Program-made: the position numbers and the translations under genes | From: Acidimicrobiia bacterium | GTDB lineage: Bacteria; Actinomycetota; Acidimicrobiia; Spongiisociales; UBA11373 | Direction of reading: 5' to 3' | DNA: 40,416 bases | Assembly (NCBI GenBank): GCA_016932695.1 | Contig: JAFGCH010000025.1 | Coordinates: forward strand, 1-40,416 | Notes under the pieces: model-generated | The model's database searches: none | What the model saw: the letters and a program-made list of their open reading frames with translations, nothing else | What the model was told of the DNA's origin: nothing | Shown here: one piece after another, positions 30,641 through 35,949 of the stretch | Numbering within the stretch: the stretch's first letter is position 1 | Layout: each line of letters opens with the position of its first letter

Positions 30641-32200
30641 ATGTCGTCCGCCCGACTGCCCCTGACCCTCCCTCTCGCCCTGATCCTCTGCCTCGCCGGA
30701 GTTGCGCCCGCCGCCGCCGACCAGGCCCCACCCCGCCTGGTCGGAGCCGCCGAGGTAGATCCCCCGGGCCGCTACCCCTTCGCCGCCGCCCTGGTCGATC
30801 GCCACCTGGCCGACGCCTGGCGGGGCCGCTTCTGCGACGGCTCTCTGGTGGCCGGCCGCTGGGTGCTCACCGCCGCCCGCTGCCTCGACGATCGCCGGCC
30901 CGCCGACGTGGAGGTGGTGATCGGCCGCCACGATCTCACCACCACCGAGGGGCACCGAGTGGCCGTGGTCGCCTTCCACGTCCATCCTCGGCACGACGGC
31001 GCCGACCTCTACGACGCCGCCCTGGTCGAACTGGCCGAAGCCGTAGCTGCCGACCCCGTCGGCCTGCCCGCCGCCGACCTTCCCCCCGGCCCCGCCGTGG
31101 TGACCGGCTGGGGCGACACCCTCACCCCGAATCGACTGCCTCGCGAGTTGCAACAGGCCGAGGTGCCCCTCCTCCCCGACACCGACTGCGCCCGGGCCCA
31201 CGGCAACGACTTCGCCGCCGGGTCCATGGTGTGTGCCGGAGACCTGGAGCGCGGGGGTGTGGGTGCTTGCCGCGGCGATCGTGGGGCGCCCCTGTTCGTG
31301 GCCGGGCCCGATGGGCCGGTGCAGGTGGGGGTTGCCGGATGGGGGGTGGGCTGCGCCCTGCCGGGGCTGCCGGCGCTGTACACGCGGGTCTCTTCGCTGA
31401 CGCCCTGGGTGCAGTCGGTCACCGGCACCGGCCCTTTCAGCTGCGCCGGCCGCGCCCCGACACTGCTGGGCACGCCGGGAGTCGACGTGCTGGTCGGCAC
31501 CGGCGGCGACGACGTGATCGTGGCCCTGGGCGGAAGGGATCTCATCGACGGCGGCGGCGGCAACGACCTCATCTGTGCCGGGGAGGGCGACGACCAGGTC
31601 TCCGGAGGTGAGGGCCACGACGTCATCTACGGCGAAGCGGGTGATGACGTGCTGCGGGGCGGCTCCGGGGACGATCGCCTCCACGGCGGCGACGGCGCCG
31701 ACGGCCTCATAGGGGAGGAAGGGAACGACCACCTGGAGGGTGGGCCCGGCGACGACACCCTGGTAGGCGGCGGCGGGAACGACCGCCTCGACGGGGGGGC
31801 CGACGCCGACCTCCTTTCCGCAGGGAGAGGCCGCGATGCCCTGAACGGCGGGCCGGGTGATGACGTGCTGCGGGCCGGGCCGGGCCCCGATGTGCTCCGC
31901 GGCGGGCCGGGCCGGGACGTCCTGCACGGCCGGGCCGGCGACGATCGCCTCCACGGCGGCCGGGACGCCGACCGGCTCATCGGAGGCTCCCACTCCGACC
32001 GCCTCTACGGAGGGCCCGGGGACGACTTCCTCGGCGGCGGCGCGGGGAGCGACCTTCTGCAAGGCGACTCCGGGGCGGACGAACTGCGCGGCGGGCCGGG
32101 CGAGGACCTGCTCAACGGGGGCGAGGGGCCGGACCGGGGCGGGGGCGGCCCCGGAGCCGACACCTGCCTACTGGAGCAGTCCCACGGCTGCGAGGCCTGA
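30641..32200 (+). CDS. Secreted trypsin-fold pseudoprotease with RTX repeats
   Basis: A 519-residue exported protein. A signal peptide ends near residue 26 (AAADQAPP). A chymotrypsin-fold domain (about 30-270) has the right layout, but TAAHC is TAARC (R80) and the GDSGGP block is GDRGAP (R214), while the Asp position (YDAAL, D125) is kept. Two of three catalytic residues are gone, so it is probably not a peptidase. From about residue 285 to 510 there are roughly 20 GGxGxDxUx calcium-binding repeats. Cysteines C81, C210 and others suggest a folded, disulfide-stabilised domain. There is no adjacent type I secretion gene, so export is probably by Sec. Confidence 0.87.
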   Translation: MSSARLPLTLPLALILCLAGVAPAAADQAPPRLVGAAEVDPPGRYPFAAALVDRHLADAWRGRFCDGSLVAGRWVLTAARCLDDRRPADVEVVIGRHDLTTTEGHRVAVVAFHVHPRHDGADLYDAALVELAEAVAADPVGLPAADLPPGPAVVTGWGDTLTPNRLPRELQQAEVPLLPDTDCARAHGNDFAAGSMVCAGDLERGGVGACRGDRGAPLFVAGPDGPVQVGVAGWGVGCALPGLPALYTRVSSLTPWVQSVTGTGPFSCAGRAPTLLGTPGVDVLVGTGGDDVIVALGGRDLIDGGGGNDLICAGEGDDQVSGGEGHDVIYGEAGDDVLRGGSGDDRLHGGDGADGLIGEEGNDHLEGGPGDDTLVGGGGNDRLDGGADADLLSAGRGRDALNGGPGDDVLRAGPGPDVLRGGPGRDVLHGRAGDDRLHGGRDADRLIGGSHSDRLYGGPGDDFLGGGAGSDLLQGDSGADELRGGPGEDLLNGGEGPDRGGGGPGADTCLLEQSHGCEA

Positions 32201-33994: not shown

Positions 33995-34591
33995 TCAGTC
34001 GACCTCGTTGCGCAGCAGGCCGAAGCGAACCGCGTTGATCAGCGCCTCCGATCGGTTCGAGGCGCCCAAGCGCTCGTACAGATCGCGCAACCGGCGGAAC
34101 ATGACCCGCTCGGAGTAGCCGTAGTCGTCGGCCAAGCCCACCACCGTGGCCCCGCGGGCCAGGGCCTCCAGCCACTCGACCTCCTCCTCGTCCACATGGG
34201 GGCGATCGCCGTGCGGGTCGCCGCCCGTCCCGGGCAGTGCCCGAGCCGTGGCGCAGGGCAGCAGGGCGTCGCCGCGCGCCGCGGCCTCCGCCACCTCCAC
34301 GATGCGGCTCGTCTCGGCCCGCCACTCCACCGCCGCCACCGCGCCGTGATGCAGCGCGTGCGCCACCGTCTCCGCATCACCGGGCGCTACCAGGGCCAGC
34401 ACCCGGCCCCGTCCCGACCAGAGATCGAGAGCGGCGCAGTCCGCCGCCGACCTCCACGACACCAGGACCAGGTCGGCCGTCTCCTCCTCACCCGCCACCC
34501 GGTGCCCCGCACCGACGAAGGCTTCTTCCAGGCCGCGCCGGTACGCCGCCGCCTCTTCGATCACCCGGATTGCCAGGCGCTCACCCTCCAT
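33995..34591 (-). CDS. LuxR-type regulator with degenerate receiver-like domain
   Basis: A 198-residue regulator. The N-terminal half (about 1-115) looks like a response-regulator receiver: alternating hydrophobic strands and helices, but without the DD pair and with no clear phospho-Asp. The C-terminal ~60 residues are a LuxR-type helix-turn-helix (WLEALARGATVVGLADDYGYSERVMFRRLRDLYERLGASNRSEALINAV). It is likely a phosphorylation-independent regulator. ATG 34591 is supported by a leaderless TACCCT box (34599-34604). It is divergent from the lysine-rich peptide and heliorhodopsin; whether it controls them is unknown. Confidence 0.78.
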   Translation of the reverse strand: MEGERLAIRVIEEAAAYRRGLEEAFVGAGHRVAGEEETADLVLVSWRSAADCAALDLWSGRGRVLALVAPGDAETVAHALHHGAVAAVEWRAETSRIVEVAEAAARGDALLPCATARALPGTGGDPHGDRPHVDEEEVEWLEALARGATVVGLADDYGYSERVMFRRLRDLYERLGASNRSEALINAVRFGLLRNEVD

Positions 34592-34598
34592 GGCCGCA

Positions 34599-34604
34599 AG
34601 GGTA
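34599..34604 (-). promoter_or_regulatory. -10 box (TACCCT) of the LuxR-type regulator, leaderless
   Basis: On the minus strand TACCCT ends 7 nt before ATG 34591. The -35 is weak. Confidence 0.4.
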
Positions 34605-34689
34605 CGCCGGCCACCACCATCATGCGGGCCGTCGACCCGGCTTCGCCGGCCCATTGCAGTTCGGTTCGATCCCAACGGAGCCTGCCTCC

Positions 34690-34739
34690 CATTTTGTGCC
34701 ATGACGCCCAACCATAATATGGCTGGCAGTACCCTGCCA
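34690..34739 (+). promoter_or_regulatory. AT-rich promoter-like segment with perfect palindrome
   Basis: TTTTGTGCC followed by CATAATAT (34713-34720) is the most promoter-like AT-rich spot before the lysine-rich peptide gene, although the spacing is short. The palindrome TGGCAG-TACC-CTGCCA (34724-34739) directly follows, at the expected transcript start. It would suit an operator. The leader to ATG 34880 would be about 155 nt, ending in a GCCCGGCC/GGCCGGGC hairpin at 34845-34862. Confidence 0.35.
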
Positions 34740-34879
34740 CCACAAAGACGGCCCTGCTACTCCCCGCGTCACGGACCATCATCGCGACCCTCGCTTGAAT
34801 TGCGCACAGCGCGATGGCTTCGGCCTCGCGCCGCAAGTACGGGCGCCCGGCCTGGGCCGGGCCGAGAAAAGGGAAACCA

Positions 34880-34981
34880 ATGCCTGCGAAGAAGGCTCCG
34901 GCCAAGAAGGCCGCCCCCGCCAAGAAGGCCGCTCCGGCCAAGAAGGCTCCGGCCAAGAAGGCTCCGGCCAAGAAGAAGTAG
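34880..34981 (+). CDS. 33-residue Lys/Ala/Pro-repeat peptide (histone H1-like tail)
   Basis: A very short gene: 13 Lys, 13 Ala, 6 Pro and Met, in KKAPA/KKAAPA units ending in KKK, with no acidic residues. The DNA is 15- and 18-nt repeats of AAGAAGGC(T/C)CCGGCC type. AAGGGAAACC precedes ATG 34880 at a good distance, and a strong hairpin follows the stop. Such tails occur in histone H1-like and HupB C-terminal domains, which bind DNA non-specifically; as a free 33-residue peptide it could coat nucleic acid or polyphosphate. That is inference. A homologous fold is not expected. It precedes heliorhodopsin by 116 nt. Confidence 0.65.
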   Translation: MPAKKAPAKKAAPAKKAAPAKKAPAKKAPAKKK

Positions 34982-34993
34982 CCAAGCCGCACC

Positions 34994-35060
34994 GAGGGGG
35001 CCGGTCCACGGAGCGGCCCCCTCATCGCGTCCGGAGGGCCGCTCGACGGAGCGGCCTTCC
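34994..35060 (+). terminator. Tandem hairpins between the basic peptide and heliorhodopsin genes
   Basis: Hairpin 1 has perfect 10-bp arms GAGGGGGCCG (34994-35003) and CGGCCCCCTC (35014-35023). Hairpin 2 has 12-bp arms at 35033-35044 and 35049-35060 (one G-U pair) with a 4-nt loop. Both share an ACGGAGCGGCC word, so they may derive from a duplication. They probably end the peptide transcript before the heliorhodopsin promoter. Confidence 0.6.
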
Positions 35061-35061
35061 G

Positions 35062-35090
35062 TTGTCTGGCGGCGCTCACCTCTCTACAGT
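35062..35090 (+). promoter_or_regulatory. Heliorhodopsin promoter, leaderless
   Basis: TTGTCT (35062-35067), a 17-bp spacer and TACAGT (35085-35090) form one of the best promoters of the window. The -10 ends 7 nt before ATG 35098, so the mRNA starts at the start codon. The preceding hairpins isolate it from the upstream gene. Confidence 0.6.
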
Positions 35091-35097
35091 CGTCGCC

Positions 35098-35895
35098 ATG
35101 GACACTCAACCCGCCATCGCGCCGGCCGCGGAGGAAGCCGGCGCCGAACGGCGCCTGCGCCGCCTCCGCTGGTACAACGTCGTCATGGGGGCCTTCCACG
35201 CCATCCAAGGCGTGGTCATCCTGGCCTTGGCCAACGACTTCGCCCTTCCCGTCACGGCCACCTTCCTGGAGGGCCCGCCGGGAGGCCCGGAGCCGCGCTC
35301 CATCAGCACCCTCTTCGAAATCCGGGTGGCTTGGGGCGTGGCCGCTTTCGTGTTCCTGTCCGCCCTGGCCCACTGGCTGATCGCCTCCCCGGGCATCTAC
35401 CAGTGGTACGTCAAGAACCTGCGGCGGGAGCGCAACTACGCCCGCTGGATCGAGTACGCCTTCTCGTCCTCGATCATGGTGGTGCTCATCGCCCTGCTCC
35501 CGGGGATCACCGACGTCGCCGCCCTGGGCGCCATCTTCGGGGTCAACGCGGCGATGATCCTGTTCGGCCTGCTGATGGAGCACTACGAGAGCCCCGGCAA
35601 GCCCAACTGGATGTCCTTCGTGTTCGGCTGCCTGGCCGGCGCCGTGCCGTGGATCGTGATCGCCGTCTATCTGTGGAGCCCCGGGGTGGCCGCCGAGCCG
35701 CCGGCTTTCGTGTACGGCATCTTCTTCTCACTGTTCGTGTTCTTCAACATCTTCGCCGTGAACATGGTGCTGCAGTACCGCAAGGTGGGGAAGTGGCGCA
35801 ACTACCTGTTCGGGGAGAGCGCCTACGTGCTCCTCAGCCTGGTGGCCAAGTCGCTGCTCGCCTGGCAGGTGTTCGCCGGCACCTTGGCGGGCTGA
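35098..35895 (+). CDS. Heliorhodopsin (retinal-binding light sensor)
   Basis: A 265-residue seven-TM photoreceptor. It follows the heliorhodopsin pattern throughout: LALANDFALPVTATFLEGPPGG in the first loop, E119 in RWIEYAFSSSIMVVLIA as counterion, FGVNAAMILFG, FGCLAGAVPWI, FFNIFAVNMVLQY and the retinal Schiff-base K251 in SLVAKSLLAWQ. H34 and H92 match the two histidines near the retinal pocket described in heliorhodopsins. The N-terminus faces the cytoplasm in this family and pumping is not expected. No retinal-synthesis gene is in the window. ATG 35098 is fixed by the leaderless promoter; a longer open frame from 34795 reads out of phase through the peptide gene. A strong terminator follows. 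Confidence 0.95.
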   Translation: MDTQPAIAPAAEEAGAERRLRRLRWYNVVMGAFHAIQGVVILALANDFALPVTATFLEGPPGGPEPRSISTLFEIRVAWGVAAFVFLSALAHWLIASPGIYQWYVKNLRRERNYARWIEYAFSSSIMVVLIALLPGITDVAALGAIFGVNAAMILFGLLMEHYESPGKPNWMSFVFGCLAGAVPWIVIAVYLWSPGVAAEPPAFVYGIFFSLFVFFNIFAVNMVLQYRKVGKWRNYLFGESAYVLLSLVAKSLLAWQVFAGTLAG

Positions 35896-35919
35896 GTTCC
35901 CGCCGATCCAATACCCCGG

Positions 35920-35949
35920 CGAGGCCCCGGGCACCTGCCCGGGGCCTCG
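35920..35949. terminator. Strong bidirectional terminator hairpin
   Basis: Fourteen-base arms (35920-35933 and 35936-35949, core GGCCCCGGGC/GCCCGGGGCC) form a perfect palindrome, with a CTTT run just after on the plus strand. It lies between the convergent stops of heliorhodopsin and the flavoprotein gene. Confidence 0.75.

What the first reader, a model, noticed from the sequence alone, without database searches (positions are those of the whole stretch)
35062..35949. Heliorhodopsin with its own leaderless promoter and closed by a strong terminator
Sequence shows a heliorhodopsin with all key positions (E119, K251, H34, H92). Heliorhodopsins are known as non-pumping light receptors whose signalling partners are mostly unknown. 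Here the gene is transcriptionally isolated: tandem hairpins before, a TTGTCT-N17-TACAGT promoter ending 7 nt from the ATG, and a 14-bp palindrome after. No retinal-synthesis gene is near, so retinal must come from elsewhere. The neighbours (basic peptide, LuxR-type regulator) are candidates for partners.
Basis: partly seen in the sequence, partly recalled or inferred. Interest (0 to 1): 0.75.

Follow-up and report, generated by a model that had tools for sequence, protein, structure and literature searches.

The report
Stand-alone heliorhodopsin gene, no local partner
This is an ordinary heliorhodopsin (a retinal-binding light-receptor protein) with its own conserved promoter in an uncultured actinobacterium that has no recognisable retinal-making enzymes, and its two neighbouring genes are partners of each other rather than of the receptor.

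Summary
Window 35098-35895 (+) encodes a 265-aa heliorhodopsin (Pfam 341 bits) with E119, K251, H34 and H92 matching 48C12 E107/K241/H23/H80. It is flanked by two strong hairpins upstream and one downstream. The promoter TTGTCT-N17-TACAGT ends 7 nt before the ATG. In the only other genome of the genus both boxes and the 17-nt spacing are kept while the spacer diverges, and all eight family loci with an upstream region have a TAnnnT box 6-8 nt before the start. Leaderless starts are common in this family, so this is conserved but not special.

The partner idea fails. The LuxR-like gene and the Lys-rich peptide form their own divergent module around a TGGCAG-N4-CTGCCA palindrome. The module occurs throughout the family, unlinked to heliorhodopsin and also in genomes without it; only in this genus are they adjacent. 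No neighbour is broadly conserved across the class.

No Blh/Brp, RPE65 or CrtI was found genome-wide, so retinal is probably scavenged, as already published for Ca. Actinomarinales. The genome also carries a second retinal protein, an NDQ-type rhodopsin (predicted Na+ pump).

Verdict: new member of a known family, autonomous transcription unit, function in trans unknown.

The parts
35098..35895 (+). heliorhodopsin, 265 aa (E119 counterion, K251 retinal lysine, H34, H92)
   Evidence: Pfam 341 bits, NCBIfam 335 bits; alignment to 48C12 and TaHeR
35062..35090 (+). leaderless promoter: -35 TTGTCT 35062-35067, -10 TACAGT 35085-35090, 17-nt spacer, 7 nt to ATG
   Evidence: Boxes and spacing conserved, spacer diverged in same genus; TAnnnT 6-8 nt before start in 8/8 family loci
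35920..35949 (.). 14-bp hairpin after the gene, likely terminator shared with the convergent FAD-linked oxidase gene (no U tail)
   Evidence: a different but equally strong hairpin (-32.1 kcal/mol) lies after the gene in L046
34994..35023 (+). first hairpin after the peptide gene, separating it from heliorhodopsin
   Evidence: stem conserved with diverged loop in L052
35032..35061 (+). second hairpin, abutting the -35 box
   Evidence: less well conserved in L052
34880..34981 (+). 33-aa Lys/Ala/Pro peptide; neighbour, part of a separate module, not of the heliorhodopsin unit
34723..34738 (.). TGGCAGTACCCTGCCA palindrome between regulator and peptide genes (operator-like); separate module
   Evidence: 0-2 mismatches in all nine family copies examined
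33995..34591 (-). LuxR/NarL-like regulator (198 aa from the leaderless ATG at 34591); separate module
   Evidence: weak NCBIfam MadR match, no Pfam match; orthologues across the family unlinked to heliorhodopsin

Best explanation
A canonical, non-transporting heliorhodopsin expressed as a stand-alone leaderless mRNA. SHOWN by sequence: all key residues, the conserved autonomous promoter, flanking hairpins, no broadly conserved neighbour, no recognisable retinal-forming enzyme in the genome. INFERRED: the opsin binds retinal taken up from outside through K251, absorbs visible light, and passes a slow conformational change from its cytoplasmic face to a partner encoded elsewhere (a soluble enzyme, photolyase or transporter, as in the few characterised heliorhodopsins). 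It is not expected to pump or conduct protons, because the E191/W195 hallmark of the transporting viral heliorhodopsins is L212/F216 here.
For: Family membership. Non-transport residues: L212/F216 align with TaHeR I199/F203 and so with V2HeR3 E191/W195 (PMC9448325). Promoter footprint. Neighbours change between genera while the gene and its start-proximal -10 box stay. No Blh in own genome and in only 4 of 172 heliorhodopsin-positive genomes of the class; no RPE65; only N-terminal nucleotide-binding-motif matches for CrtI/amino oxidase; the one SQS_PSY hit scores far below every NCBIfam cut-off, squalene synthase best. Published precedent: Ca. Actinomarinales carry type-1 rhodopsin and heliorhodopsin without retinal synthesis (PMC7771536).
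Against: No expression, retinal-binding or light data. The assembly is in 161 contigs and 95.5% complete, so a missing pathway could lie in a gap. The nearest relative's record is labelled DeepCast_400m, which fits poorly with a light function if that is a water depth.
Confidence: 0.75

Rival explanations
1. The adjacent LuxR-like regulator and/or basic peptide is the signalling partner of heliorhodopsin: light changes the regulator's activity or the peptide relays the signal.
For: Adjacent in both genomes of the genus; LuxR genes have been reported near heliorhodopsin genes in UBA5794 actinobacteria (PMC12008989).
Against: Regulator-peptide module is conserved across the family on other contigs or far away, including in G001 and G309 where no heliorhodopsin was found. 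The regulator gene is on the other strand with its own leaderless start; two hairpins separate the peptide from heliorhodopsin.
Confidence: 0.05
2. Heliorhodopsin regulates a conserved metabolic or repair enzyme encoded elsewhere in the genome (glutamine synthetase, photolyase or ABC transporter, as in characterised homologues).
For: Such pairs have been demonstrated for other heliorhodopsins (PMC9529153, PMC9769723, PMC11109279). A photolyase-like gene (my reading of the sequence) lies near heliorhodopsin in L054, L055, L056 and L082.
Against: None of these genes is next to it here; no interaction data. This is a specific version of the best explanation.
Confidence: 0.3
3. It is a light-driven proton transporter like V2HeR3.
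For: Same protein family.
Against: Lacks E191 and W195 equivalents (L212, F216).
Confidence: 0.03
4. The opsin works without light or retinal, or serves as a sensor of environmental retinal.
For: No retinal synthesis found; 108 of 172 heliorhodopsin-positive class genomes have neither a detected type-1 rhodopsin nor Blh; a same-genus record is labelled 400 m.
Against: Retinal lysine, counterion and pocket histidines are all conserved; retinal scavenging explains the data equally well.
Confidence: 0.06

Closest known systems
Heliorhodopsin 48C12 (uncultured freshwater actinobacterium; PDB 6su3, 6uh3)
   Same: Same family, full-length alignment at 254 bits; E107, K241, H23, H80 all conserved
   Different: Sequence diverged (E 1e-74); different gene context
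TaHeR (Thermoplasmatales archaeon, PDB 6is6)
   Same: Full-length alignment, 225 bits; small-aliphatic/Phe pair at the V2HeR3 gate positions
   Different: Archaeal; lower score
Heliorhodopsins of Ca. Actinomarinales (PMC7771536)
   Same: Coexist with a type-1 rhodopsin, no retinal synthesis genes; the streamlined 1-Mb genomes of family f12 in the class search are probably this group (inference)
   Different: There the gene always lies between two nuo operons; here it is not next to nuo. Their type-1 rhodopsin is reported as a proton pump; here it carries the NDQ motif
Heliorhodopsin-partner operons (AbHeR-GS PMC9529153, TfHeR-photolyase PMC9769723, OcHeR-OmrDE PMC11109279)
   Same: Same receptor family
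   Different: Those have a partner in the same operon or adjacent; here the gene is alone

Membership tests
heliorhodopsin | Profile match over the full length (PF18761, NF038020) | tested here: met
   341.3 and 335.5 bits, profile 1-242/242 and 1-244/244
heliorhodopsin | Retinal lysine in helix 7 with SxxxK motif | tested here: met
   S247-LVA-K251
heliorhodopsin | Glu counterion in helix 3 | tested here: met
   E119 aligns with 48C12 E107
heliorhodopsin | Conserved pocket histidines (H23, H80 in 48C12) | tested here: met
   H34, H92
heliorhodopsin | Inverted topology (N terminus inside) | not testable with these tools
   Inferred from full-length homology to solved structures only
heliorhodopsin | Binds retinal, slow photocycle, no ion pumping | not testable with these tools
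   Needs expressed protein
proton-transporting heliorhodopsin (V2HeR3 type) | Glu191 and Trp195 gate | tested here: not met
   L212 and F216
heliorhodopsin-partner operon | Partner gene on the same strand with a very short intergenic gap and conserved in relatives | tested here: not met
   Upstream peptide separated by hairpins and promoter; downstream gene convergent; neighbours not conserved
leaderless transcription unit | -10 box about 6-8 nt before the start codon, conserved in relatives | tested here: met
   8/8 family loci; footprint in same genus; the 5' end itself is not mapped

The most novel reading that the evidence does not exclude
Heliorhodopsin in Acidimicrobiia is typically a receptor that depends wholly on foreign retinal (108 of 172 positive genomes have neither a detected type-1 rhodopsin nor Blh), so it may report the presence of environmental retinal, i.e. 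of decaying phototrophs, as well as light.
Probability: 0.1. Interest if true: 0.6.

Novelty: new member of a known kind. Interest (0 to 1): 0.3.

Why it matters
It removes two attractive but wrong partner candidates, and it shows that in this family heliorhodopsin is a single-gene unit whose start-proximal promoter box is kept while its neighbours change. That points to a partner encoded in trans. It also adds class-wide numbers (4 of 172 heliorhodopsin genomes with a recognisable Blh) to the open question of where such bacteria get retinal.

Tried and rejected
Partner role of LuxR gene and peptide: rejected by distribution. Class-wide conserved neighbour: all-against-all clustering of ORFs within about 9.5 kb in 59 loci found none broadly conserved, apart from spurious antisense ORFs over the gene itself and loosely scattered common families; small clusters only, such as a photolyase-like gene in four loci and one genus-specific block. 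Sigma-70 consensus scan: no hit on promoter or terminator. Rfam: no hit in the window. Viral contigs: no relative. Heliorhodopsin tree: family f1 sequences are not monophyletic, so the shared leaderless start is not simply one inherited copy, or there was transfer within the order. No structure prediction was run because solved relatives at 254 bits make it uninformative.

Full report
OBSERVATION. The gene at 35098-35895 (+) encodes 265 aa. It matches the heliorhodopsin models end to end (341.3 bits Pfam, 335.5 bits NCBIfam). The best solved relatives are heliorhodopsin 48C12 (254 bits) and TaHeR (225 bits). It is the only heliorhodopsin in the genome.

PROMOTER AND HAIRPINS. Two hairpins follow the peptide gene (34994-35023 and 35032-35061) and one follows heliorhodopsin (35920-35949); all fold far better than shuffles. 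None has a U tail and the consensus scan calls no terminator or promoter. The better evidence is comparative. In the only other genome of the genus (L052) the -35 (TTGTCT versus TTGTCC) and -10 (TACAGT) boxes and the 17-nt spacing are kept while the spacer has changed, and the first hairpin keeps its stem with a changed loop. In all eight family loci that include the upstream region a TAnnnT box lies 6-8 nt before a plausible start. Outside the family this is rare: only five of about 50 loci match the TAnnnT-before-start pattern (L058, L081, L094, L096 and AT-rich L103). Leaderless starts are, however, ordinary here: 34 of 135 predicted genes in family loci have the box at 5-9 nt, against 9 of 135 at a control offset. 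That set includes some of the family heliorhodopsins themselves, so it is a slight overcount. The promoter is therefore real in all likelihood but not unusual.

NEIGHBOURS. tblastn of the window's neighbours against heliorhodopsin loci finds the regulator and peptide only in the same-genus locus. In the related genus (L046) heliorhodopsin has the same wider surroundings (hyp29792, trypsin/RTX-repeat gene, hyp32256) but no regulator or peptide; in the remaining genera the neighbours are unrelated. Clustering ORFs around 59 loci found no broadly conserved neighbour.

THE REGULATOR-PEPTIDE MODULE. A profile of the two regulator sequences finds strong orthologues (E 1e-37 to 1e-49) in eight further family genomes (G018, G026, G001, G183, G309, G228, G109, G022), on contigs or positions away from heliorhodopsin; G001 and G309 have no detected heliorhodopsin. 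In the seven of these with upstream sequence a divergent small Lys-rich ORF is present or readable: clean AKK peptides in G183, G309, G022 and G109 from the script, the same read by eye from the printed upstream sequence in G026 and G001, and a more divergent Lys/Arg-rich one (also read by eye) in G018. A TGGCAG-N4-CTGCCA palindrome with 0-2 mismatches lies between the two genes in all nine copies examined, against 0.16-0.59 expected hits at up to 3 mismatches. Between the two genus copies the peptide changes mostly silently, with in-frame indels. My reading: the regulator controls the peptide gene through the palindrome, and the adjacency to heliorhodopsin is a genus-level accident. The regulator itself has only a weak match to a LuxR/NarL family (MadR, 24.6 bits) and none in Pfam.

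RETINAL. Own genome: Blh/Brp family absent, RPE65 absent while two control genomes ring, CrtI and amino oxidase only as short N-terminal nucleotide-binding matches, one SQS_PSY protein far below every NCBIfam cut-off with squalene synthase as best match. Lycopene cyclase was not searched. In the class, Blh was found in 5 of 395 genomes, which also shows that the profile can be detected; 4 of those are among the 172 with heliorhodopsin, and 108 of 172 have neither Blh nor a detected type-1 rhodopsin. The same lack was published for Ca. Actinomarinales (PMC7771536). Limits: incomplete genomes, profile sensitivity, no class-wide RPE65 search.

MECHANISM. The gate residues of the proton-transporting viral heliorhodopsins (E191, W195 of V2HeR3; PMC9448325) are L212 and F216 here, matching TaHeR I199 and F203, so transport is unlikely. 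The best-supported model is a light receptor using scavenged retinal and acting on a partner encoded in trans. The partner is unknown; glutamine synthetase, photolyase and ABC transporters are the characterised precedents.

TAXON.

VERDICT. Observation confirmed; heliorhodopsin and isolation supported; proposed partners not supported. A new member of a known family.

Noticed in passing
L066 348-1160 - (own genome, contig C136): The genome also encodes a type-1 rhodopsin with an NDQ motif (N97, D101, Q108), the Na+-pump signature. The closest solved structure is 8qle (230.7 bits); from memory this is the NDQ subgroup with an extra Glu (PMC11006869), and that Glu appears to be present. It is 83-86% identical to proteins in two genomes of the same order and was not found in the other 13 genomes of the family, so it may have been transferred.
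   Followed up: partly
window 33995-34981: Conserved divergent module: LuxR-like regulator, TGGCAG-N4-CTGCCA palindrome, and a roughly 30-aa Lys/Ala/Pro peptide (histone H1-tail-like). Present across the family and independent of heliorhodopsin.
   Followed up: partly
window 34698-34820: Stretch upstream of the peptide gene that is unusually conserved in the same-genus genome, around and beyond the palindrome; could be a long leader or regulatory region. No Rfam match.
   Followed up: no
window 30641-32200 +: Trypsin-like protease fused to RTX calcium-binding repeats (PF00089, PF00353), probably secreted, with an orthologue upstream of heliorhodopsin in L046.
   Followed up: no
L174 (same-genus locus, record VGBK01000025.1): The record is labelled DeepCast_400m; if this is a water depth of 400 m, a light receptor there is puzzling.
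   Followed up: no
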